Shown piece by piece: positions 53,117 through 64,000 of a stretch of 64,000 nucleotides of DNA. Location: assembly GCA_023667285.1 (NCBI GenBank), contig JAMPAK010000001.1, positions 154,091-218,090 of the forward strand, written 5' to 3'. Every line of letters begins with the position of its first letter. Position 1 is the first letter of the stretch. The notes beneath the pieces were generated by a model. It searched no databases. It saw only the letters and a program-made list of their open reading frames with translations, and was not told where the DNA came from. The translations under genes were made by a program, and so were the position numbers. Origin of the DNA: Muribaculaceae bacterium. Lineage in GTDB: Bacteria > Bacteroidota > Bacteroidia > Bacteroidales > Muribaculaceae.

Positions 53117-54610
53117 ATGAAAAAGTCTACAATCTGGTTTCTCACTATAATCATGGCCCTGACATTCGTCGGGTTGCTCTATATACAGATAATGTATATG
53201 AACAACATGAAGAAGATGCGCGACGACCAATTCGACGAGGGCGTCAAGCGGTCACTTTATGCCGTGACCACACGTCTGGAACAAGATGAGACAAAGCACT
53301 TCCTCGAGGAGGATATGGCACAAATGGAGATTCGACCCATCTCCGGGCGTGGAGAAGGCTCCGTAGGCATAACAAATAAGTTCTCTACTCCTGAGGGAAT
53401 CAACTACGACCTCACTCTGCGCATGAACGTCGACCGCCAGGCGGCGTCCCCATCCATGAAGGAACTGCTCAAGGGCAAGTATCTCTATCAGAAGGGGCTG
53501 CTCGATGATGTGATCCTCAACATCATCAACCAGTCGAGCAACCGCCCCATTCTCGAGCGAGCCGACTCAGCCGAGGTGTCACGCTATCTTAGGTCTGAGC
53601 TCGACAACAACGGACTCACACTCCCATTTGAGTTTGCCGTAGTCAACAGGGTAGGGGCCTACGTCTATCATTCTCCCGGATTCTCACCATCGCCAGATGA
53701 GCGCTCCGGCATGTTTATCCAGACCCTTTTCCCCAACGACCCCAGGAATAAGACATATTATCTTAAGGTGTATTTCCCCACCAAGAGCGACTATATCTTT
53801 GACTCTATACGATTCATGATACCGTCGTTCATTTTCACGTTTATACTCCTTGTCACCTTTGTCTGCACAATCATCTTGGCCTTCCGCCAGAAGAAACTCA
53901 CGGAGATGAAAAACGATTTCATCAACAACATGACCCATGAGTTCAAGACACCTATATCTACAATCTCGCTCGCAGCCCAGATGCTCAACGATAATGCCGT
54001 GCTGAAGTCTCCATCGATGCTGTCTCACATATCCACGGTCATCAACGATGAGACCAAGCGCCTGCGCTTCCAGGTTGAGAAGGTGCTTCAGATGTCTATG
54101 TTCGACCGTCAGAGAGCCACTCTCCGTCTTCAGGACGTCGATGCCAACCAGTTGATAGCAGGTATCACATCTACCTTCAAACTCAAGGTCGAGAAGTATG
54201 GCGGACATATCGAGACCATCATTGGCGCTCGCGAAGCAACCGTCAATGTCGATGAGATGCATTTCACCAATGTCATCTTCAACCTGCTTGACAATGCCGT
54301 CAAGTATCGCAGAGAAGAAGTGCCTCTCCAGCTCACCGTCAGCACCCGCAATGTCAAGGCCCACGGCCATGAGCTCTTCGAAGTAGTCATTCACGACAAC
54401 GGCATCGGCATCAAGCGTGATGACCTCAAGAAAATATTTGAGAAATTCTATCGCGTCTCTACCGGCAATCGTCACGATGTCAAGGGATTCGGCCTCGGTC
54501 TAGCATACGTCAAGAAGATGGTCGACGAACTGGGTGGACAGATTACTGTGGAGAGCGAACTCGGAATAGGAACGAAATTTATAATAACACTACCAATAAC
54601 CCAAAACTGA
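53117..54610 (+). CDS. rprX: Sensor histidine kinase (RprX-like)
   Basis: This 497-residue membrane kinase has a first helix at about residues 6-26, a periplasmic sensor domain to about 233, and a second helix at about 234-256. The H-box NNMTHEFKTPIST has the phosphorylated histidine at 274. The ATPase domain has the N-box NLLDNAVKYR near 392, DNGIGI near 431 and GFGLGLAYVK near 457. It closely resembles the RprX sensor of Bacteroides fragilis, including the MKKSTIW N-terminus as I recall it. The signal is unknown. It is followed after 7 bases by its regulator. Confidence 0.9.
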   Translation: MKKSTIWFLTIIMALTFVGLLYIQIMYMNNMKKMRDDQFDEGVKRSLYAVTTRLEQDETKHFLEEDMAQMEIRPISGRGEGSVGITNKFSTPEGINYDLTLRMNVDRQAASPSMKELLKGKYLYQKGLLDDVILNIINQSSNRPILERADSAEVSRYLRSELDNNGLTLPFEFAVVNRVGAYVYHSPGFSPSPDERSGMFIQTLFPNDPRNKTYYLKVYFPTKSDYIFDSIRFMIPSFIFTFILLVTFVCTIILAFRQKKLTEMKNDFINNMTHEFKTPISTISLAAQMLNDNAVLKSPSMLSHISTVINDETKRLRFQVEKVLQMSMFDRQRATLRLQDVDANQLIAGITSTFKLKVEKYGGHIETIIGAREATVNVDEMHFTNVIFNLLDNAVKYRREEVPLQLTVSTRNVKAHGHELFEVVIHDNGIGIKRDDLKKIFEKFYRVSTGNRHDVKGFGLGLAYVKKMVDELGGQITVESELGIGTKFIITLPITQN

Positions 54611-54617
54611 AAAAATT

Positions 54618-55325
54618 ATGGAAGAACGTTTGCGCATACTGCTGTGTGAGGACGACGAGAATCTCGGCATGCTCCTCCGCGAATATCTGCAGGCAAAGGG
54701 CTTCAATGCCGACCTCTTTGCCGACGGCGACAGTGGATACAAAGCCTTCCTCAAAGGTAAATACGATCTCTGTGTGCTTGATGTCATGATGCCTAAGAAG
54801 GACGGATTCGCACTCGCTCAGGAGATAAGGACAGTCAACTCCGAGGTTCCCATCATATTCCTCACTGCAAAGTCTCTCAAAGACGACATCCTCGAAGGAT
54901 TCAAGATTGGTGCCGACGACTATATCACCAAGCCATTCTCGATGGAGGAGCTCGTATTCCGCATTGAAGCCATTCTCCGCCGTGTCAAAGGCAAGAAGGG
55001 CAAGGAAATCACCATGTATAAGATTGGTCGTTTCACCTTCGACACCCAGAAGCAGGTGCTCCTTATCGACGACAAAGTCACTAAACTCACCACCAAGGAG
55101 TCAGAACTACTCTCCCTTCTCTGCGCTCACGTCAATGAGATTCTTGAGAGAAACTTCGCCCTCAAGACCATCTGGATTGACGACAACTACTTCAACGCTC
55201 GCTCAATGGACGTCTACATAACCAAGTTGCGCAAGCATCTCAAGGACGATCCATCCATCGAAATCATCAACATCCACGGCAAGGGTTACAAGCTCATTGC
55301 TCCGGAAATGGAGTCACAGGCTTAA
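54618..55325 (+). CDS. rprY: OmpR-family response regulator (RprY-like)
   Basis: This 235-residue regulator has a receiver domain with acidic pocket CEDDEN (about residues 11-16), phosphoacceptor Asp55 in VLDVMMPKKDG, a conserved TAK near 83-85 and lysine in YITKPFS near 105. The C-terminal winged-helix domain (about 135-232) ends in SMDVYITKLRKHLKDDPSIEIINIHGKGYKL (quoted in part: INIHGKGYKL). It is the partner of the adjacent RprX-like kinase. In B. fragilis RprY is reported to regulate stress and metabolism genes; targets here are unknown. Confidence 0.93.
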   Translation: MEERLRILLCEDDENLGMLLREYLQAKGFNADLFADGDSGYKAFLKGKYDLCVLDVMMPKKDGFALAQEIRTVNSEVPIIFLTAKSLKDDILEGFKIGADDYITKPFSMEELVFRIEAILRRVKGKKGKEITMYKIGRFTFDTQKQVLLIDDKVTKLTTKESELLSLLCAHVNEILERNFALKTIWIDDNYFNARSMDVYITKLRKHLKDDPSIEIINIHGKGYKLIAPEMESQA

Positions 55326-56034: not shown

Positions 56035-56066
56035 TTTGCCAGTGTCGGCAGAAGTTAGTACCTTTG
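56035..56066 (+). promoter_or_regulatory. Promoter of the cobalamin riboswitch operon
   Basis: TTTG (56035-56038), 20 bases, then TACCTTTG (56059-56066): a full consensus match that places the transcript start near 56070, at the 5' edge of the riboswitch. Confidence 0.8.
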
Positions 56067-56071
56067 CTGCT

Positions 56072-56280
56072 GTTTTGGTGTCGCGCCTGCAGCGCGATGA
56101 AAAGGGAACCAGGTGAGAATCCTGGACAGACCCGCTGCTGTGAATCCCTCCAAACTCCCTGAGGATTATTCCACTGTCAGCCCTCGCTGATGGGAAGGAC
56201 CTCCGAGAGGGGATGAGTCAGAAGACCTGCCAAGACTGAGACCCTGTTTTGTAATTTTCGGGATACAAGATGACAAAACG
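56072..56280 (+). promoter_or_regulatory. Cobalamin riboswitch with expression-platform hairpin
   Basis: The leader carries the conserved cobalamin aptamer core. GGGAACCAGGTGAGAATCC begins near 56104, followed by ACAGACCCGCTGCTGTGAA and the B12 box AGTCAGAAGACCTGCC (about 56215-56231). Downstream, TGTTTTGT (56245-56252) can pair with ACAAAACG (56273-56280), ending three bases before the ATG, so the hairpin would hide the ribosome-binding region. There is no T-run after it. This suggests translational control, with B12 binding lowering expression, as for most riboswitches of this class. The exact 5' boundary is estimated from the promoter. Confidence 0.93.
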
Positions 56281-56283
56281 AAC

Positions 56284-58446
56284 ATGAAACATCTAAAGCC
56301 GGACATCTATTTATTAATTCTACTATGGCTGTGGATGCCGCTCGACGCGGTGTCTGCGACCATTGATGTCCCCGAATTGCCCGAGGATACTCTCACGCTG
56401 CAGTCTGTCCAGGTCTTTGGCAAATCCGCAGGCAGAAAATTGTCTGAAGGAGCGCTCTCCGTCAATGCCGTCGAACTAAAGACAGATGTCAACAGACTCA
56501 TAAATCTCAACGACCTCATCAACCACAGCGCAGGCGTGAAAGTCAGACGCCAGGGAGGAGCCGGTTCTGACCTCGACCTCTCAATCAATGGTCTATCAGG
56601 TAACTCCATACGTTACTTTATTGACGGTGTTCCACTCGACTCAAAGGGCAGCGAGGTCAACCTCGACAACATACCCGTCAACCTCGTCGAGAGAGTGGAA
56701 CTATATAAAGGTGTTGTCCCCGCTCTCCTGAGTTCCGACGCACTCGGAGGCGCCGTCAACATCGTCACAAAGAAACGCCGTCAAAACTTCATTGATGCGT
56801 CTTACGGAATAGGATCCTTCCACACACAAAGCGCGGATCTCACCGGACAAGCCTTCATCCCGCGGACAGCAATAGCCGTCCGCCCCACATTCGGCATAAA
56901 CTACTCCAAGAACGATTATATCATGCGTGATGTTGAGGTTTGGAGCGAGAGCCAGGATCGCTATATCAAGGCCGACAAGCGCCGCTTTCATGACGACTAT
57001 CTATCCATGCTTGGCCAAATCGAGGTGGGTGTTTCAGATGTCAGATGGGCCGATGCATTCTTCATCACAGGATCATACACACTCATCAACAAAGAGATAC
57101 AGACTGGAGCAATCCAGAGCAAAGTCTATGGAATGGCCGAGCGCAAAGCTCATGCATGGAACATCGGACTTCGATATCGAAAACAGTGGGGAGCCGTGAA
57201 CACACGCCTCAATCTCTCCCATACCTGGGACCACAGCGAGACCGTTGACTCAGCCTACAGAAAATACTCCTGGGACGGCACTTGGCTCCCCTCAGGCGGC
57301 AACGAGATGAACAACCGCACACGCTCCATCAGAGTCTATAACCGGCCCCTCACCATCCTCAATGCCGGCGCAGACTACTCCTTCATCCCCGGACACACCG
57401 TGAGCCTCAACTACATGCTCAACCGTCGCGGCAACGACCGCTACGACAAACTTGACGCGACATTTGAACCCTCAAACGATGTAGTGAGCAAATACATCCT
57501 CTCATTGACATATTCCCAGGAATTTTTCGACGGAAGATGGCAGAACATGTTTTTCGGGAAAGATTACATAAACGCCCTCTCCATCGAGCAGACTGAGAAC
57601 GCCTCAATATCCGGCGCCGACAAAATAGACAGCCATGCCACCAAAAACTACTGGGGCGGGGGAATAGGATCTCGACTTACCATCATTCCATTGCTTGCCT
57701 TGAAGGGCTCATACGAACACAGTATCCGACTCCCCCAGTCACGCGAGCTGCTTGGCAATGGAACCACCATCTATCCCAGTCTTACTCTAAAACCTGAACA
57801 GAGCAACAACTGGAACCTTGGCATATACGGCGAATGGCGCCCCACATCAGACCACTATCTCACATATGAAGTCAACGGCTTCATACGCCACGTCCAGAAT
57901 TACATCCGCGCCGTGGTATCAGAGCGCGAGGGAATGATGCAATATACCAACGAACCCGCCATTGACATCAAGGGCTTTGACTTCGATATCCGCTACACAT
58001 GGCGAGAAGCGCTCCAAGTGGTCGTCAACGGCTCATGGAACGACGCACGAAACCTGAGGAAGTATAAGACAGATGGAAACCCCTCCGCCACATATAAGAA
58101 CCGTGTCCCCAATCGCCCATGGGCCTACGGCAATGTCGAGGCCTCCTATACATTTCGAAATCTGGCCAAGGGGATGGCTGACCGCCTCCGTCTCGAAGCC
58201 TCATGGGAATGGATCCACTGGTACTTCCTGAACTGGGAAGCCTATGGCTCTCTTCAGTCCAAGGCCCGCATCCCCACCCAGAGCATCTTCAACCTCTCTG
58301 CCACATACTCAATCCTTGATGGCCGATACAATCTCTCACTTGAGTGCGACAACCTCTTCGACCACCTTGCCTACGACAACTACATGCTCCAGAAACCCGG
58401 CAGGGCTTTCTATGCTAAATTCCGCATATTTTTAAACAATCTATAA
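56284..58446 (+). CDS. btuB: TonB-dependent outer membrane receptor (BtuB-like)
   Basis: This 720-residue outer membrane transporter has a signal peptide (about 1-25), a plug domain at about 38-155 (ending ERVELYKGVVPALLSSDALGGAVNIVTKK, quoted in part: SSDALGGAVNIVT) and a 22-strand-type barrel to the C-terminus. The N-terminal LQSVQVFGKS segment may include the TonB box. It lacks the carboxypeptidase-like domain of SusC proteins. Control by a cobalamin riboswitch makes corrinoid the likely substrate, with heme, cobalt chelates or other tetrapyrroles as alternatives. It is followed by the DUF4374 lipoprotein gene after 18 bases. Confidence 0.9.
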   Translation: MKHLKPDIYLLILLWLWMPLDAVSATIDVPELPEDTLTLQSVQVFGKSAGRKLSEGALSVNAVELKTDVNRLINLNDLINHSAGVKVRRQGGAGSDLDLSINGLSGNSIRYFIDGVPLDSKGSEVNLDNIPVNLVERVELYKGVVPALLSSDALGGAVNIVTKKRRQNFIDASYGIGSFHTQSADLTGQAFIPRTAIAVRPTFGINYSKNDYIMRDVEVWSESQDRYIKADKRRFHDDYLSMLGQIEVGVSDVRWADAFFITGSYTLINKEIQTGAIQSKVYGMAERKAHAWNIGLRYRKQWGAVNTRLNLSHTWDHSETVDSAYRKYSWDGTWLPSGGNEMNNRTRSIRVYNRPLTILNAGADYSFIPGHTVSLNYMLNRRGNDRYDKLDATFEPSNDVVSKYILSLTYSQEFFDGRWQNMFFGKDYINALSIEQTENASISGADKIDSHATKNYWGGGIGSRLTIIPLLALKGSYEHSIRLPQSRELLGNGTTIYPSLTLKPEQSNNWNLGIYGEWRPTSDHYLTYEVNGFIRHVQNYIRAVVSEREGMMQYTNEPAIDIKGFDFDIRYTWREALQVVVNGSWNDARNLRKYKTDGNPSATYKNRVPNRPWAYGNVEASYTFRNLAKGMADRLRLEASWEWIHWYFLNWEAYGSLQSKARIPTQSIFNLSATYSILDGRYNLSLECDNLFDHLAYDNYMLQKPGRAFYAKFRIFLNNL

Positions 58447-58464
58447 TCACAAATCAACTGCAAA

Positions 58465-59739
58465 ATGAGAAAGATGAAATTTCTTGCCGCTTCATTCATG
58501 GCATTGTTCCTGTCATTTGGTCTGACAGCATGCTCTGATGACGACGACAAGACCCAAAACGAAGACGACCCCACACTCATACAGGACTACCATTTCGACT
58601 TATGGGTAGCCCTTGACCGTCACGGTGGCATGGGCCGTGATGTCCAGACTCTCGTCCGTAGTATGGACAACCTCGATGCTGACCAACCCGTCATCACATT
58701 TACTCGAACCGGAACTGAGGTGAATGCCAAACTTTCACTGGAGACCATCCTCAAAGGCGCCTACTATTATCAGGTCCCTGTCGATGGAGACCGATTCGGC
58801 AAATATCGCATCACGGACAACCAGATTGAAGTTGTAGCCGAGCGCAGGTTTGCCAAGAACGTTTTCTCAACACGCAAGTACACTCATGCATGGATTGACG
58901 ACAACACCCTCATCATCATGGCCGCCGACGGAGAGGCAAAGAACATCATTTGGACTAAACTTAATGCCGATGACCTCACCATCATCGACGAGGGTACCCT
59001 CAACGTCCCCATGCCTGAGGGTGCTACAACATTCACGACATCCGGCATCCTAACATATCGCAAGAGCGACAACAAACTCTTCTACTTCTACTATGGCAAA
59101 TCGGGAGGTGCCCGTGGCAAACGTGTTGGCAACATGCTTACGGCTGTCATAACCCCCGGCAATATGAATGTTGAATCAAACACCCCGACAACCTTCATTG
59201 ACTGTGAGATGGTCGGAACTGCCTATGGCGAGCTTCTCCAGACAACCACCTTCATCGATGACCGCAACAATCTCTACCTCGCATGCGTAACAGACGATAC
59301 CGACGGCAACGAGCACAGCCATCTCCTCCGAATCAATGCCAACTCAACAACCTTCGACCCCAACTATGACGGCTTCACCGCAGGCGGAAAACTTATCTCC
59401 GTCATGTATCTCGGCGGCGATAAAGTCATGGCTTATGCCCGCGATGACCAATATGGGACAGACATCGACGCCTTCAGCCACTACTACACCGTCATCGATA
59501 TCGTCAACAAGACCTCCAGCCCCGTCTCATTCGAGGGTCAACCTCTCGCATTCAGCAGCGGCCGCTTCTCTTCGCGTATGGCCTATGTCAATCACAAGGC
59601 TTACATCGGAATTGACGCCGAAGGTTCTAACCCACAGATCTATATCTATGATGCACTTAACGGAAACGTGGTGAAAGGTGCTGAGATGAAAGCCGGATAC
59701 TACTTCGAGCAAATCCGCGTTGTTGAGGATCTCAAATAA
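58465..59739 (+). CDS. DUF4374 surface lipoprotein
   Basis: This 424-residue lipoprotein has cysteine 23 in the lipobox LTAC. The next residues, SDDDDK, form the acidic cluster that acts as a surface-export signal in Bacteroidota, so the protein should sit on the outside of the outer membrane. The body has the repeated beta-strand pattern of a propeller (for example HAWIDDNTLIIMAADGEAKN and FTTSGILTYRKSDNKLFYFYYG, quoted only to show pattern) and matches DUF4374. From memory, a DUF4374 protein (XusB) binds siderophores for a TonB receptor, and BtuG propellers bind B12 for BtuB; this gene occupies the equivalent position. Confidence 0.88.
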   Translation: MRKMKFLAASFMALFLSFGLTACSDDDDKTQNEDDPTLIQDYHFDLWVALDRHGGMGRDVQTLVRSMDNLDADQPVITFTRTGTEVNAKLSLETILKGAYYYQVPVDGDRFGKYRITDNQIEVVAERRFAKNVFSTRKYTHAWIDDNTLIIMAADGEAKNIIWTKLNADDLTIIDEGTLNVPMPEGATTFTTSGILTYRKSDNKLFYFYYGKSGGARGKRVGNMLTAVITPGNMNVESNTPTTFIDCEMVGTAYGELLQTTTFIDDRNNLYLACVTDDTDGNEHSHLLRINANSTTFDPNYDGFTAGGKLISVMYLGGDKVMAYARDDQYGTDIDAFSHYYTVIDIVNKTSSPVSFEGQPLAFSSGRFSSRMAYVNHKAYIGIDAEGSNPQIYIYDALNGNVVKGAEMKAGYYFEQIRVVEDLK

Positions 59740-59789
59740 TCTCTTAGGTAACCAAGACTTTTTCATATATTTCACTTTTTTCTGCTTCA

Positions 59790-59820
59790 TTCCCGGGATG
59801 ATGTGACTTCATCCCGGGAA
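59790..59820 (+). terminator. Intercistronic hairpin before cbiK
   Basis: TTCCCGGGATGA (59790-59801) pairs perfectly with TCATCCCGGGAA (59809-59820) around a 7-base loop, followed by ATTTTC. It lies 18 bases before the cbiK start. It could be a partial terminator or an RNA-processing and stability element that lowers chelatase expression relative to the receptor genes. Confidence 0.65.
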
Positions 59821-59838
59821 ATTTTCAACCCTTTTATC

Positions 59839-60741
59839 ATGAATAAATACATCCTGGTGATATTCCTCCTCGCCTTGAGTCTGAACGCTAATGCCTTTGA
59901 TAACCTCGACAGTGGCAAAGGCGACAAGGCAGCCCTCCTGATGGTCCACTTCGGCACCACATTCGACGACACACGAGAGAAGACCATAGATGCAATCAAT
60001 CAGATGGCCGTCAATCAATTCTCAAACATGAAGGTAGTCGAGGCATACACCTCTCGCATCATTATCTCACGCCTCGCCAAGAGAGGCATTGAGAAACTCA
60101 CGCCTCGACAGGCGCTCCTCAGACTTGCAGCCGAGGGCTACACTCACGTCTTTATTCAGAGCACCAACATTATAGATGGCATCGAATCCGAAGCCCTCAG
60201 AGTTGAGGCCGACTATATGGTCCCGTTTTTCAAGGAGGTTAGGATAGGGCGGCCCCTTCTTTACTCTGTACAGGATTGCCAGGAGGTCACAGAGATATTG
60301 GCCTCGCGCTATGACGCTCACCCCGCCGACAAACGTGCCCTGGTGTTCATTGGCCACGGCACACACACACCCGCCAACGCCATCTACTCGCAGATTGACT
60401 ATATGTTTAAGGCCGATGGACATCCCGACTGCTATGTCTCAACCGTCGAAGGCTACCCATCGTTCGACACAACCTCCGACCTCCTCCTTAAGAATAAGGT
60501 TAAGGAAGTCACTCTCATTCCCTTCATGTTTGTTGCCGGAGACCATGCCAAGAACGACATAGACGGTGAGTGGCGCGAGCAGTTGACTGCTAATGGCTTA
60601 AAAGTCAACACAATCCTTGAGGGCCTAGGGCAAATCCCGGAAATTCGTAGCATCTTCATCCGCCACATTCATGATGGCTTGAAAGAAAAGCCGCTTTCAC
60701 CCGTAGAAAGAAAGGCCGCATTCCTTCAGGAGAATCTCTAA
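59839..60741 (+). CDS. cbiK: Exported CbiK-type sirohydrochlorin cobaltochelatase
   Basis: This 300-residue class II chelatase is related to CbiK. A clear signal peptide (about 1-19, ending ANA) indicates export, unlike cytoplasmic CbiK. Catalytic features are present: HFGTTFDDTREKTI near residue 37, metal-site GHGTH with His173, VEGYP with Glu204, and FVAGDHAKND with His236. Periplasmic CbiK proteins are known from Desulfovibrio, where a role in cobalt or heme transport was suggested. I start at the ATG of MNKYILVIF; the longer frame begins inside the upstream hairpin. CobN follows after 10 bases. Confidence 0.9.
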   Translation: MNKYILVIFLLALSLNANAFDNLDSGKGDKAALLMVHFGTTFDDTREKTIDAINQMAVNQFSNMKVVEAYTSRIIISRLAKRGIEKLTPRQALLRLAAEGYTHVFIQSTNIIDGIESEALRVEADYMVPFFKEVRIGRPLLYSVQDCQEVTEILASRYDAHPADKRALVFIGHGTHTPANAIYSQIDYMFKADGHPDCYVSTVEGYPSFDTTSDLLLKNKVKEVTLIPFMFVAGDHAKNDIDGEWREQLTANGLKVNTILEGLGQIPEIRSIFIRHIHDGLKEKPLSPVERKAAFLQENL

Positions 60742-60751
60742 TTGCACATTG

Positions 60752-63700
60752 ATGTCTGCACCCCGCACAAAAACAGTTCTGATAATACTTGCCTCAATAC
60801 TCACGATAACCATCGCGGCTATCGTGAGTATCAGGCATTTTACCACTACAAGGATCCTTGTTGTCAATCCGTTACCCACCCAGGCTGCCGAGCTCACTCT
60901 CAATAACGACACGGACATCCGGGTTACATGTGTGAAAATGGAGGAGGCTAAAGACTTCGGCAAATATGACGCCATCCTTCTCTATGGCCGCGGTCTTTAT
61001 CTCGACTCTCTCCAAACAGCCGAACTTGACAAAGCCTCACTCAAGGGAGTCAGAATTTTTACCATAGGCCGCAGCGAGGTCGAGGGTAACATCCCCTCCC
61101 CTCAGGCAGACACCTTGAAGGCATATTTCAAAAATCCATGCAGAAGCAATTATGTGAATATGCTGAAATATGTCCGTCACCTATGCAGGACCAGCCACAA
61201 CATCGACCGTGACTATGATGCCCCCATACTTCTCCCGGACGGCTTGTTCTATCACCTTGAGCCAGAGCTATATTTCTCAAGCGCAGACAGCCTCACAGAC
61301 TACCTCAAATCTAACAGACTCTATATCCCTGACGGCCACAGAGTGGCACTCATTTCAGGCATGACCTTCCCGGTCGAGGGAAACCGCGCCCACATCGACT
61401 CACTCATCTCCCGTCTGACCCGCGTGGGTTACAATGTCTATCCGCTGTCAGCCGGCGGACAACTCCGTGATAAATTGATAAAAGACGTTGATCCCCATGC
61501 CATAATCTATCTCCCCATGGGTCGGCTTGCTGACAAGTCCTTCATCGATTGGTGCTACGACCGTGGTGTGCCAATCTTCATGCCGTTCCCCCTCACCGTC
61601 GACAGAGCCTCATGGCTCGACAAGAATAAACCCATAAGCGGGGGGACTCTCACAGCCCGTATAGTCATCCCAGAAACCGATGGCGGCATGTCGCCTCTCT
61701 GTCTTGCCACTCAGGATCCCAATGAGGACAACATACCTGTCTATCATCCCGTAGAGGAGCGCATTGATGCTTTCATCGAGCAATTCACCCGTTTTATGAG
61801 GCTGAGACATAAGGACAATGCCGACAAACACATAGCGATCGTCTACTATAAAGCACCCGGCCATGATGCTCTGCTCTCCTCCGGCCTGGAAACAATCCCC
61901 TCTCTCTATAATTTCCTCAAACGCTTGAAACGAGAAGGCTATGATGTCGGTAGTCTTCCTGAATCACTCAAAGTCTTCATGAGAATCATCAAGAAATCCG
62001 GCGAGGTGATGGGCGACTATGCCTCGGCGGCACAGACAAGATTCATGGATGAGGCAGACCCCGTATGGCTCCATAAAGACGAGTATGAGTCATTGGCTTC
62101 TAAGGTTCTCGACCCTGAGAAATATCAAGAGATCATAGAAAGATATGGCGACGCACCCGGCGGTATCCTATCACGTGGCGACAGTCTGGCCATGGCCATG
62201 GTCAGGTTTGGCAACATCCTTCTCTTCCCTCAGCCACGTCCCGCTGTCGGTGATGATGATTTCAAAATGGCTCACGGTGTCGACGTGGCTCCCCCTCACA
62301 GTTACATTGCCCCTTATCTATACATGCAAGAGGTGTTCGACGCTGATGCCCTGATACATTTCGGCACACACGGCAACCTCGAGTTCACTCCTGGAAAGAA
62401 CGCAGCCCTCTCAGGCGCTGATTGGGCCGATGCACTTGTGGGAAACAGACCACATTTCTACTTCTACACCACCGGTAATATTGGTGAGTCCGTCATCGCG
62501 AAGCGCAGGTCTCACGCTGTGATTGTGAGCCATCTCACACCCCCCTTCATCGAGACTGGAATATCCGAAAAATACCGGGGTATTCTCAATGAGATACACT
62601 CAGCCATCTCAGACGAATCCACCAACTCTCCGGCTTTAAGATCTCTGGCCAGAAAGTCGGGAATACTTAAAGACCTGAGGATTGACACAGTCTCTCCAAC
62701 ACCTCTCACCAGAGATGAACTGTTTAAGATTGATGAATATCTCGAAGACCTTTCCGTTGAGAAAGTCACAGGAAAATTCTATACGATGGGCGAGCCGTAT
62801 TCCGACAAAGATATGCAATCCACCCTCAAGGCCATGACACTCGATAAAATTGCCTACGGCATGGCCCGTGACGATTTCAAGAACGGCCTGATCAGCAGGG
62901 ACAATCTGAATGATATATCCTTCGTCAGACATCACTATCACCGACAGGCTGAGAAAGAGATATCTGACGGTAACAACGATGAGGTCGACGAATACCGCAG
63001 ACTGCTCATGTCATCGGCAGGGGCGGAGATTGAATCCATGATCGGCGCTCTCTCAGGCCGACCCGTCAGGCCTGCTCCAGGAGGAGATCCGGTCCTTGAA
63101 CCAAATGTCCTCCCGATGGGGCGGAATATGTATAGCATCAACGCTGAGGCTACTCCTGGCGAAAAAGCTTGGGAAGACGGCCTGCTGTTTGCCGATAAGA
63201 CACTCAAGACATATATTGAGACGCATGGAGGCTATCCCCGTAAAGTGAGTTACTCCCTTTGGGCCGGAGAGTTCATATCCACAAAAGGGGCCACTTTGGC
63301 CCAAGTGTTGCGTATGTTGGGTGTAGAGCCTGTGCGCGACAGCAAAGGGCGTGTGATGGATCTGCGGCTCACTCCGTCAGCTGAACTTGGCAGGCCACGT
63401 ATCGACGTGATGGTTCAGGTCTCCGGACAATTGAGGGACATTGCAGAGTCCAGGCTCAAAATCATCACCGATGCCATTCGCTTGGCCTCAAGTGCAGAGG
63501 ATGATCTCTATCCAAACTATGTGGCCGAGGGAACACTCACGCAGGAAAAGAATCTTGTTGATAGGGGCATTCCCCCTCGTGAGGCAAGGGAGATGTCTGT
63601 GATGAGGGTTTTCGGACCTGTCAACTCCGGCTACAGCACCGGCATGCTGTCATACACCGAGAATTCAGGCCGATGGGAAGACCGACAGGAACTTGTCCAA

Positions 63701-64000
63701 GGATACGTCAACAACATGTGTGCCATGTATGGCGACAGCACCTATTGGGGACGGATGGAACCGTATGCAATCGAGGCAGCGGTCTCAGGGACTGACATCA
63801 TCGTCCAGCCGCGCCAAAGCAACACATGGGGGCCTCTATCGCTCGACCATGTATATGAGTTTACAGGTTGTCTATCCATGCTCTGCAATGAGGTCAACGG
63901 GAAGACTCCCGATGCCATAATGGCAGACTATCGCAATGCCAATCTACCTAAGATACAGTCATTGGAAACAGCCATTGCCGTTGAGACCCGCACCAGCCTG
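60752..64000 (+). CDS. cobN: CobN-type chelatase with N-terminal membrane anchor (partial)
   Basis: The frame is open from the ATG at 60752 to the window end: 1083 codons with no stop. Residues 8-26 form a hydrophobic helix after a short basic N-terminus (MSAPRTK), so the rest probably faces the periplasm. The CobN/BchH/HmuS family signature HFGTHGNLEFTPGK is at 536-549, with TTGNIGES shortly after. Classical CobN inserts cobalt with CobS and CobT in the cytoplasm. The anchored Bacteroidota relatives include HmuS, which, as I recall, is reported to remove iron from heme. No cobS or cobT is visible. The function here is therefore open. Confidence 0.88.
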   Translation, partial: MSAPRTKTVLIILASILTITIAAIVSIRHFTTTRILVVNPLPTQAAELTLNNDTDIRVTCVKMEEAKDFGKYDAILLYGRGLYLDSLQTAELDKASLKGVRIFTIGRSEVEGNIPSPQADTLKAYFKNPCRSNYVNMLKYVRHLCRTSHNIDRDYDAPILLPDGLFYHLEPELYFSSADSLTDYLKSNRLYIPDGHRVALISGMTFPVEGNRAHIDSLISRLTRVGYNVYPLSAGGQLRDKLIKDVDPHAIIYLPMGRLADKSFIDWCYDRGVPIFMPFPLTVDRASWLDKNKPISGGTLTARIVIPETDGGMSPLCLATQDPNEDNIPVYHPVEERIDAFIEQFTRFMRLRHKDNADKHIAIVYYKAPGHDALLSSGLETIPSLYNFLKRLKREGYDVGSLPESLKVFMRIIKKSGEVMGDYASAAQTRFMDEADPVWLHKDEYESLASKVLDPEKYQEIIERYGDAPGGILSRGDSLAMAMVRFGNILLFPQPRPAVGDDDFKMAHGVDVAPPHSYIAPYLYMQEVFDADALIHFGTHGNLEFTPGKNAALSGADWADALVGNRPHFYFYTTGNIGESVIAKRRSHAVIVSHLTPPFIETGISEKYRGILNEIHSAISDESTNSPALRSLARKSGILKDLRIDTVSPTPLTRDELFKIDEYLEDLSVEKVTGKFYTMGEPYSDKDMQSTLKAMTLDKIAYGMARDDFKNGLISRDNLNDISFVRHHYHRQAEKEISDGNNDEVDEYRRLLMSSAGAEIESMIGALSGRPVRPAPGGDPVLEPNVLPMGRNMYSINAEATPGEKAWEDGLLFADKTLKTYIETHGGYPRKVSYSLWAGEFISTKGATLAQVLRMLGVEPVRDSKGRVMDLRLTPSAELGRPRIDVMVQVSGQLRDIAESRLKIITDAIRLASSAEDDLYPNYVAEGTLTQEKNLVDRGIPPREAREMSVMRVFGPVNSGYSTGMLSYTENSGRWEDRQELVQGYVNNMCAMYGDSTYWGRMEPYAIEAAVSGTDIIVQPRQSNTWGPLSLDHVYEFTGCLSMLCNEVNGKTPDAIMADYRNANLPKIQSLETAIAVETRTSL

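What the first reader, a model, noticed from the sequence alone, without database searches (positions are those of the whole stretch)
56035..64000. B12-riboswitch operon encoding two exported chelatases of different classes
One transcription unit, controlled by a cobalamin aptamer, carries an outer membrane receptor, a surface lipoprotein, a CbiK with a signal peptide and a CobN with a membrane anchor. Both chelatase types normally act in the cytoplasm on corrin precursors and belong to alternative pathways. Finding both, each with an export signal and with no corrin ring synthesis gene between them, suggests metal insertion into, or removal from, a tetrapyrrole after uptake. Possibilities are cobalt salvage from damaged corrinoids, remetallation of metal-free corrinoids, or heme dechelation misregulated in appearance by B12. 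Seen: genes, signals, riboswitch. Inference: location and chemistry.
Basis: partly seen in the sequence, partly recalled or inferred. Interest (0 to 1): 0.78.

Follow-up and report, generated by a model that had tools for sequence, protein, structure and literature searches.

The report
Periplasmic cobalt-insertion operon feeding B12 synthesis
A bacterium that seems unable to build tetrapyrrole rings carries a vitamin-B12-controlled operon that may import a ready-made ring and swap its metal for cobalt outside the cytoplasm, which could explain how such bacteria make B12.

Summary
In detail: cobalamin riboswitch (111 bits), XusA-like receptor, XusB-like lipoprotein, exported CbiK, and a CobN-like protein anchored at both ends. 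The parts are known kinds; cbiK with CobN-like btuS1 is published in Bacteroides fragilis. In four relatives the same genes run on into BtuF-BtuC, in two of them further into corrin-ring genes. This genome has corrin genes too, about 640 kb away, but no HemC (0 of 198 genomes of its family). Its only PF06180 chelatase is the exported one. BtuS1 keeps the cleft residues of the heme dechelatase HmuS except one, but lacks both ligands of HmuS's extra heme and its methionine-rich insert. Best explanation: an imported tetrapyrrole is de-metallated by BtuS1 and loaded with cobalt by CbiK in the periplasm, then imported for corrin synthesis. That makes the 'corrin pathway without precursor' puzzle testable. 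Substrate and chemistry are inferred. Against: CbiL is missing in this family; seven of eleven corrin-plus-CbiK genomes of the family have no CobN-like protein, so demetallation is not general; BtuFCD was not located here; B. fragilis mutants gave no sign that BtuS removes iron; a hairpin before cbiK leaves co-transcription open.

The parts
56059..56248 (+). Cobalamin riboswitch aptamer (RF00174)
   Evidence: cmscan 111 bits, E 5.8e-27, positions 1-189; one of two found in the genome
56284..58446 (+). TonB-dependent receptor, XusA-like
   Evidence: PF07715 Plug; best solved match 9GBC, the XusAB complex, E 5.8e-94; far below BtuB equivalog cut-offs
58465..59739 (+). Surface-type lipoprotein, XusB-like
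   Evidence: Lipobox with acidic residues after the Cys (by eye); profile A1 hits XusB 9HQE, E 3.4e-7; 8 sequences aligned, the others 39-75% identical to this one
59790..59820 (+). 12-bp GC-rich hairpin in the xusB-cbiK gap; a hairpin also stands in the gap after xusB in 3 of 4 relatives compared
   Evidence: not listed as terminator-like by the scan
59839..60741 (+). Exported CbiK-type class II chelatase
   Evidence: PF06180 253 bits; 1QGO E 6e-43, 2XVX E 3e-40, FetB 9B86 E 4e-33; Glu/His/His recalled as metal site are kept; signal peptide by inspection
60749..64000 (+). BtuS1-type CobN-like protein, continues to window-equivalent 64588; N- and C-terminal membrane segments, body predicted periplasmic
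   Evidence: PF02514; HmuS 9D26 is the best solved match; clade and residue signature

Best explanation
The operon is the extracytoplasmic front end of a B12-making pathway in a bacterium that cannot make tetrapyrroles. When B12 is scarce the riboswitch allows expression. The XusA/XusB-like pair captures a tetrapyrrole (or metallo-tetrapyrrole) and brings it into the periplasm. BtuS1, a membrane-anchored paralogue of the heme dechelatase HmuS, removes an unwanted metal. Exported CbiK inserts cobalt. A BtuFCD-type ABC importer (next in line in four relatives; not located in this genome) takes the cobalt-tetrapyrrole into the cytoplasm, where CbiH-C, CbiG-F, CbiE-T, CbiJ-D, CbiA and CbiP finish the corrin ring. 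Shown here: gene content, riboswitch, export signals (by inspection), active-site conservation, absence of HemC, exported CbiK as the only PF06180 protein found, and linkage to importer and corrin genes in relatives. Inferred: the substrate, the direction of the BtuS1 reaction, the order of steps, and import of the cobalt form.
For: HemC 0 of 198 family genomes including this one (the same search finds it in 27 of 149 order genomes). CbiD in 12 of 198 including this genome at C11:864761, with CbiHC, CbiET, CbiGF, CbiA, CbiJD and CbiP beside it. CbiK occurs in 11 of those 12, and in 17 of 198 in all (Fisher p 4e-13, not corrected for shared ancestry); in the order sample all 9 full-length CbiK genomes have CbiD. 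The only PF06180 match in this genome is the exported CbiK. In four relatives XusA-XusB-(PepSY)-CbiK-BtuS1 continues into BtuF-BtuC(-BtuD) (G331, G200, G272, JAMPAV) and in G331 and G272 on into corrin genes. All 24 CbiK rows from HemC-negative genomes show an export signal by inspection; the only two of 30 without one are in HemC-positive genomes, one of them (G087) clustered with CbiMN, HemA, HemC and CobA-HemD. BtuS1 keeps F502, H506, H538, S1067, S1199, W1202 and H1209 of HmuS in 5 of 5 and Q1198 in 4 of 5, but replaces M79, H254 and S1014 in 5 of 5. The 4 family genomes with full-length BtuS1 are all CbiD+, and one (G272) has no other CobN-family match.
Against: CbiL, the C20-methylase that should act on cobalt-sirohydrochlorin, is missing in 12 of 12 CbiD+ genomes of this family but present in 11 of 12 of other families, so sirohydrochlorin or siroheme as the imported ring is doubtful here unless another methylase substitutes. 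Demetallation is not a general part: 7 of the 11 family genomes with CbiD and CbiK have no CobN-family match at all, and a record with a 67%-identical CbiK (L046) has no BtuS1 between CbiK and BtuF. BtuFCD is not next to BtuS1 in this genome and was not searched genome-wide. Six family genomes have CbiK without a riboswitch found ahead of it, 5 of them CbiD-negative, and two HemC-positive genomes have an exported CbiK (G029, G082), so export is not unique to this use. G193 has a riboswitch-XusA-XusB-PepSY-CbiK locus but no CbiD match (87% complete). In B. fragilis the btuS1 btuS2 double mutant grew poorly on heme iron yet made more, not less, protoporphyrin, and the authors concluded that the BtuS proteins have little or no dechelatase activity (PMC6460266 passages). 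The hairpin before cbiK may separate expression.
Confidence: 0.45

Rival explanations
1. Heme-iron acquisition: BtuS1 is a second heme dechelatase or a helper of one, CbiK a heme-binding partner like FetB, and the riboswitch is incidental.
For: B. fragilis btuS1 btuS2 double mutant defect on heme iron (PMC6460266 passages); HmuS is reported as a heme dechelatase with structure (PMC12583661 passages); CbiK matches FetB 9B86; cleft residues mostly kept.
Against: The same genome has a separate operon with HmuY, receptor, HmuS and an ExbB-like gene. In B. fragilis the btuS1 single mutant had no significant defect, and cbiK disruption (unpublished there) did not affect heme-iron use. Both ligands of the extra HmuS heme and the Met-rich insert are missing in BtuS1. 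B12 riboswitch and corrin linkage. G272 has BtuS1 and no other CobN-family match.
Confidence: 0.14
2. Corrinoid repair: the system removes a wrong metal from, or puts cobalt into, imported metal-free or damaged corrinoids.
For: B12 riboswitch; hmu-like operons with a cobalamin riboswitch were suggested to serve cobalamin metabolism (PMC10100974 passages); absence of CbiL in this family fits import of a later intermediate.
Against: Would not need the other ring-building enzymes that co-occur; the known CbiK substrate is an early ring, sirohydrochlorin (NCBIfam name); the receptor is XusA-like, far below BtuB cut-offs.
Confidence: 0.15
3. Cobalt piracy: the XusAB-like pair imports a cobalt-loaded metallophore, PepSY proteins reduce it where present, and CbiK and BtuS1 handle the cobalt.
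For: XusA/XusB resemblance; a PepSY_TM gene in L045 and PepSY-like genes by BLAST in other loci; the corrin route needs cobalt.
Against: Does not explain a 1279-residue protein with the HmuS cleft residues, nor the source of the ring in HemC-negative genomes. It could act together with the best explanation.
Confidence: 0.12
4. A remnant: this genome's copy was cut off from importer and corrin genes by the neighbouring integrase/tRNA event and is decaying.
For: BtuS1 is followed directly by a GH88 ORF, a tRNA and an integrase-like ORF instead of BtuFCD.
Against: All four genes are open with conserved sites, the riboswitch is full length, and a corrin cluster exists elsewhere in the genome.
Confidence: 0.1

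Closest known systems
BtuS1 / cbiK operon of Bacteroides fragilis 638R (BF638R_2501-2512; PMC6460266, abstract, outline and passages seen)
   Same: CobN-like, predicted periplasmic membrane-anchored protein in a putative operon with cbiK
   Different: There tested for heme-iron use; no cobalamin role in the passages seen (the BtuS name and a metalloporphyrin-salvage idea are cited there to Rodionov 2003, not held). Here: XusAB-like uptake, B12 riboswitch, corrin linkage
HmuS heme dechelatase (PDB 9D26; PMC12583661, passages seen)
   Same: Family, two membrane anchors, most cleft residues
   Different: BtuS1 lacks the M79/H254 heme ligands, S1014 and the Met-rich insert; different operon and regulation
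Hmu-like operons with cobalamin riboswitch (PMC10100974, passages seen)
   Same: Same observation that some hmu-like operons carry a cobalamin riboswitch; suggested to serve cobalamin rather than heme
   Different: No mechanism, no CbiK, no link to the missing tetrapyrrole pathway in the passages seen
CbiK-family proteins of Desulfovibrio (2XVX) and FetB (9B86)
   Same: CbiK-type proteins with solved structures; that both are exported, and their source species, is recalled
   Different: The position I recall as a heme-binding His of the Desulfovibrio protein is Asn here and in 7 of 29 aligned CbiKs, this one and its five closest relatives among them
XusABC xenosiderophore system (PMC13142918, passages seen)
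   Same: Receptor and lipoprotein are XusA/XusB-like; a PepSY gene stands in some related operons
   Different: B12 riboswitch; associated with chelatases and corrin genes rather than iron release
Tetrapyrrole precursor salvagers, including a precorrin-2 class (PMC6461909 and PMC8123684, passages seen)
   Same: Corrin pathway without upstream precursor synthesis; Porphyromonas gingivalis is cited there as lacking the steps to precorrin-2
   Different: Experiments there concern 5-aminolevulinic acid users; no import or metallation machinery for Bacteroidetes in the passages seen

Membership tests
Cobalamin riboswitch RF00174 | Score above gathering threshold, full-length aptamer | tested here: met
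   111 vs 31.5 bits, positions 1-189
CbiK cobaltochelatase (class II) | PF06180 above cut-off and metal-site Glu/His/His | tested here: met
   253 vs 26.2 bits; residues kept (residue roles recalled)
CbiK cobaltochelatase (class II) | NCBIfam equivalog NF047852 cut-off (400 bits) | tested here: not met
   201.6 bits
CbiK cobaltochelatase (class II) | Cytoplasmic location of the classical enzyme | tested here: not met
   N-terminal signal peptide by inspection only; no localisation experiment
CobN of the aerobic B12 pathway (class I) | NCBIfam CobN equivalog cut-offs | tested here: not met
   460 vs 1248 and 377.6 vs 822 bits, for the 1084-aa part in the window
CobN of the aerobic B12 pathway (class I) | CobS and CobT partners | not tested
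HmuS heme dechelatase | Cleft residues F502, H506, H538, S1067, Q1198, S1199, W1202, H1209 | tested here: met
   All kept in this protein; across 5 BtuS1, Q1198 is His in one
HmuS heme dechelatase | Extra-heme ligands M79 and H254, S1014, Met-rich insertion | tested here: not met
   R, M and A in 5 of 5 BtuS1; insert segments of HmuS gapped in all 5; M/H in 20 of 20 HmuS rows with an N-terminus
HmuS heme dechelatase | hmuYRSTUV operon | tested here: not met
   No HmuY; XusA-XusB-CbiK instead; the genome's hmu operon is elsewhere
BtuS1-type CobN-like proteins | PF02514, membrane anchors, next to cbiK, clade apart from HmuS | tested here: met
XusAB | XusA-like receptor and XusB-like lipoprotein encoded together | tested here: met
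   9GBC E 5.8e-94; XusB profile hit E 3.4e-7
XusAB | DUF4374 Pfam match | tested here: not met
   not among Pfam hits up to E 5
XusAB | Binding of iron-siderophores | not testable with these tools
   needs a binding assay
BtuB B12 receptor | BtuB equivalog score | tested here: not met
   TIGR01779 88 vs 599.7 bits, NF007926 82.5 vs 836
Tetrapyrrole precursor salvager | Corrin-ring genes present, uroporphyrinogen III synthesis absent | tested here: inconclusive
   Corrin cluster present and HemC absent, but CbiL also absent, and HemA, HemB and HemD not searched

The most novel reading that the evidence does not exclude
In some Bacteroidales, B12 synthesis begins outside the cytoplasm: the only cobalt chelatase of the corrin pathway is periplasmic and acts on a tetrapyrrole taken from neighbours or host through a Xus-type receptor, in this genome after a HmuS paralogue has stripped its metal, and the cobalt-loaded ring is then imported. 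This would supply the missing first steps in corrin-making bacteria that lack uroporphyrinogen III synthesis.
Probability: 0.35. Interest if true: 0.85.

Novelty: new variant of a known kind. Interest (0 to 1): 0.64.

Why it matters
Bacteria that have corrin-ring genes but no way to make the ring precursor are an open puzzle (Porphyromonas gingivalis is cited for it in PMC6461909, passages). This operon names specific proteins for the missing steps, suggests for BtuS1 a role distinct from HmuS, and predicts that an early tetrapyrrole is exchanged in gut communities. If true, genome-based labels of such species as B12 makers would need revision, because their B12 supply would depend on rings made by others.

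Tried and rejected
Structure prediction of the lipoprotein was asked for with alignment A1; the machine was busy each time, so no model exists and the XusB assignment rests on a sequence profile only.

Pfam alone gave no lead for the lipoprotein, and phmmer of the single sequence against solved structures gave nothing better than E 0.045; the profile search gave XusB.

The idea that both chelatases are ordinary cytoplasmic B12 enzymes was dropped because of the signals and the CobN scores. The idea that the receptor is a BtuB was dropped on scores. The idea that BtuS1 is simply HmuS was weakened by the residue signature.

The genome-collection scan with the CbiK protein found only 2 relatives. 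Rodionov 2003 (BtuS naming) and Roper 2000 (P. gingivalis corrin pathway) are not held and are cited only through other papers. Paper searches on precursor import or exported CbiK listed 1, 13, 3, 2 and 0 papers; no title or abstract start proposes this route, but most were not opened.

Rows dropped: one HmuS (G336) was read in a wrong frame, corrected. Of 25 HmuS-type places, 21 were aligned; G213 and the fragments of G176 and G334 (two) were left out, and whether those fragments are HmuS or BtuS1 was not settled. HmuS of G200 lacks its N-terminus and was left out of the ligand count. G193's CbiK and CobN are contig-end fragments, left out of residue counts. In the order sample, G132 (124-residue hit) and five genomes with sub-cut-off hits were counted as CbiK-negative. 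In one search the script stopped at a masked residue in the last row (HmuS_G226) after the figures used here were printed. One search stopped part-way through the operon table; one search printed the rest.

Full report
What is there. At 56059-56248 is a full-length cobalamin riboswitch (111 bits), one of two found in the genome. Behind it lie a TonB-dependent receptor (56284-58446), a lipoprotein (58465-59739), a CbiK with a signal peptide (59839-60741) and a CobN-family ORF that leaves the window and ends at window-equivalent 64588. One base after its stop an ORF of the GH88 family opens, then come a tRNA and an integrase-like ORF (the integrase by eye).

What the proteins are. The receptor's best solved match is 9GBC (E 5.8e-94), the XusAB complex of the xenosiderophore system (PMC13142918, passages). 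The lipoprotein has no usable Pfam hit, but a profile of eight sequences hits XusB (9HQE, E 3.4e-7). CbiK matches Salmonella CbiK (1QGO), a chelatase 2XVX (recalled as Desulfovibrio) and the heme-binding protein FetB (9B86). The residues I recall as the metal site are kept: both His in 29 of 29 alignable CbiKs and Glu in 28 of 29 (30 rows, one contig-end fragment set aside). The CobN-family protein is closest to HmuS (9D26) and far below the CobN equivalog cut-offs.

BtuS1 is not HmuS. The same genome has a second CobN-family protein in an operon with HmuY, a receptor and an ExbB-like gene. Five BtuS1 and 21 HmuS sequences were aligned. In an unrooted tree without outgroup BtuS1 is one group with local support 1.0 on a long branch (0.92) that joins among the HmuS sequences. 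All five BtuS1 keep F502, H506, H538, S1067, S1199, W1202 and H1209 (HmuS numbering; residue roles from PMC12583661 passages); Q1198 is His in one. The ligands of the extra heme, M79 and H254, are R and M in 5 of 5 BtuS1 and M and H in 20 of 20 HmuS with an N-terminus (one is truncated). S1014 is A in 5 of 5. The methionine-rich insert is absent. So BtuS1 probably still handles a tetrapyrrole in the central cleft but without the extra-heme site.

The system around it. In four relatives the front end is followed by importer genes: XusA-XusB-(PepSY)-CbiK-BtuS1-BtuF-BtuC(-BtuD) in G331, G200, G272 and a Muribaculum record (JAMPAV). In G331 and G272 it runs on in the same direction into CbiHC and, in G331, CbiET and CbiGF; in G200 corrin genes follow on the opposite strand. 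The second named record (L046) has CbiK-BtuFCD-CbiHC-CbiET-CbiGF-CbiJD-CbiA without BtuS1. Outside the family, G093 has riboswitch-CbiK-receptor-PepSY-BtuFCD-CbiL-CbiHC, and G029 has riboswitch-CbiK-BtuFCD-CbiA-CbiL-CbiHC-CbiET. In all, 20 of 29 CbiK loci examined have a cobalamin riboswitch ahead of the CbiK on the same strand; G331's locus starts inside the receptor at a contig end, so its riboswitch state is unknown. Labels are best BLAST matches to a small set of references that I chose; representatives were checked with Pfam or NCBIfam, but of the PepSY references only the one in L045.

Corrin pathway without a precursor. CbiD is in 12 of 198 genomes of the family, including this one. This genome's cluster at C11:855180-865804 encodes CbiGF, CbiET, CbiHC, CbiA, CbiJD and CbiP, about 640 kb from the operon. 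HemC is in 0 of 198, although the same search finds it in 27 of 149 genomes of the order. The CbiL search showed no uroporphyrinogen methylase in this genome while it picked up the CobA-HemD protein of G087; this is weak evidence, since it also missed the known CbiE of this genome. CbiK is in 17 of 198 and in 11 of the 12 CbiD genomes (exception G250). In the order sample, 10 of 149 genomes have CbiK over the cut-off; one (G132) is a 124-residue hit; the other 9 are all among the 13 with CbiD over the cut-off. Fisher p values are 4e-13 and 9e-12, not corrected for shared ancestry. The only PF06180 match in this genome is the exported CbiK; CbiX was not searched by its own model.

Export and precursor synthesis. 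Of 30 CbiK rows read, 28 have a hydrophobic signal or lipobox ahead of the domain by my inspection (no signal-peptide program was used). All 24 rows from HemC-negative genomes are among them. Of four HemC-positive genomes, G087 and G143 lack a signal, G029 and G082 have one. G087 is the textbook contrast: CbiK without signal beside CbiMN, an energy-coupling ATPase, HemA, HemC and CobA-HemD, with no riboswitch found in that stretch. Two rows (L045, L046) come from records whose HemC status was not tested.

Results against. (a) CbiL is absent in 12 of 12 CbiD genomes of this family (best scores 27-54 bits) but present in 11 of 12 CbiD genomes of other families (143-214 bits; the exception is G082). 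Only 3 of those 11 pass the curated cut-off of 163, but there is a gap from 61 to 143 bits. If sirohydrochlorin were the imported ring, this family would lack the next enzyme; either the imported ring already carries the C20 methyl group, or another methylase substitutes, or the step is skipped. (b) Of the 11 family genomes with CbiD and CbiK, 4 have BtuS1 and 7 have no CobN-family match at all, so a demetallation step is an addition in some genomes and not a rule. (c) Six family genomes have CbiK with no riboswitch found ahead of it, five of them without CbiD (G151, G330, G305, G282, G288; the locus of G282 begins at a contig end), so an exported CbiK beside a receptor is also used for something other than B12. 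(d) G193 has riboswitch-XusA-XusB-PepSY-CbiK at a contig end but no CbiD match (87% complete, 490 contigs). (e) This genome's operon lacks BtuFCD next to it, and its location was not searched. (f) A stable hairpin lies between xusB and cbiK, with hairpins in the gap after xusB of L045, L047 and L048 but not L049 (only that of the window was tested against shuffles), so the two halves may be expressed at different levels. (g) In B. fragilis the btuS1 btuS2 double mutant is impaired on heme iron but released more protoporphyrin than its parent, from which the authors concluded little or no dechelatase activity of BtuS; the btuS1 single mutant had no significant defect, and cbiK disruption, reported as unpublished, did not affect heme-iron use (PMC6460266 passages). 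The later HmuS work reports dechelatase activity for a protein of the other group (PMC12583661 passages).

What is already in print. BtuS1 with cbiK in one putative operon of B. fragilis (PMC6460266, abstract, outline and passages); cobalamin riboswitches ahead of hmu-like operons, with the suggestion of a cobalamin role (PMC10100974, passages); a probably periplasmic HmuS (PMC13227078, passages); tetrapyrrole precursor salvage as a class, with P. gingivalis named (PMC6461909, passages) and a precorrin-2 class counted (PMC8123684, passages). What I did not find in the searches is the joining of these: an exported CbiK as the only PF06180 chelatase of a corrin pathway that has no precursor supply, with BtuS1 and a Xus-type uptake pair ahead of it. 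Those searches cover an open-access library only, and not all listed papers were opened.

Verdict. The parts are known kinds; the arrangement is a new variant. The chemistry and the substrate remain untested.

Noticed in passing
G000:C11:1-16000 (L004), outside the window: A separate hmu operon: HmuY, receptor, HmuS (1413 aa), a 250-aa membrane protein and an ExbB-like protein.
   Followed up: partly
G000:C11:433394-433600 (L006, L096): The only other cobalamin riboswitch found; it precedes a siderophore-type receptor (756 aa) and a 452-aa protein that looks PepSY-like by eye, possibly a second B12-controlled uptake pair.
   Followed up: partly
window-equivalent 64590-67433 (L003 10681-13524): GH88 family ORF, tRNA and integrase-like ORF directly downstream of BtuS1, where relatives have BtuFCD; looks like a mobile-element boundary.
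   Followed up: no
59790-59820 and gaps after xusB in L045, L047, L048: GC-rich hairpin in the gap after xusB in four of five loci compared; three share a CCCGGG-type core, loops differ. Possible attenuator or mRNA processing element.
   Followed up: partly
L049 4719-6132: In G272 an ExbB-like HmuU homologue and two small ORFs sit between BtuS1 and BtuF, as in hmu operons.
   Followed up: no
L050, L051, L052, L053, L054, L055: Receptor plus exported CbiK genes with no cobalamin riboswitch found ahead of them; five of these six genomes have no CbiD match. A different use of exported CbiK.
   Followed up: partly
12 CbiD genomes of the window's family: No CbiL in any of them, although the cluster read in G000 keeps CbiH, C, E, T, G, F, D, J, A and P.
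   Followed up: partly
G164, G241, G310, G326, G333, G339 (L056-L058, L098-L100): Six family genomes with riboswitch-receptor-CbiK-receptor, in five of the six loci running on into corrin genes, and no CobN-family match in the genome; their CbiK is a longer lipoprotein type.
   Followed up: partly
53117-55325: ORFs that look like a sensor histidine kinase and a response regulator upstream of the operon (by eye); no link tested.
   Followed up: no
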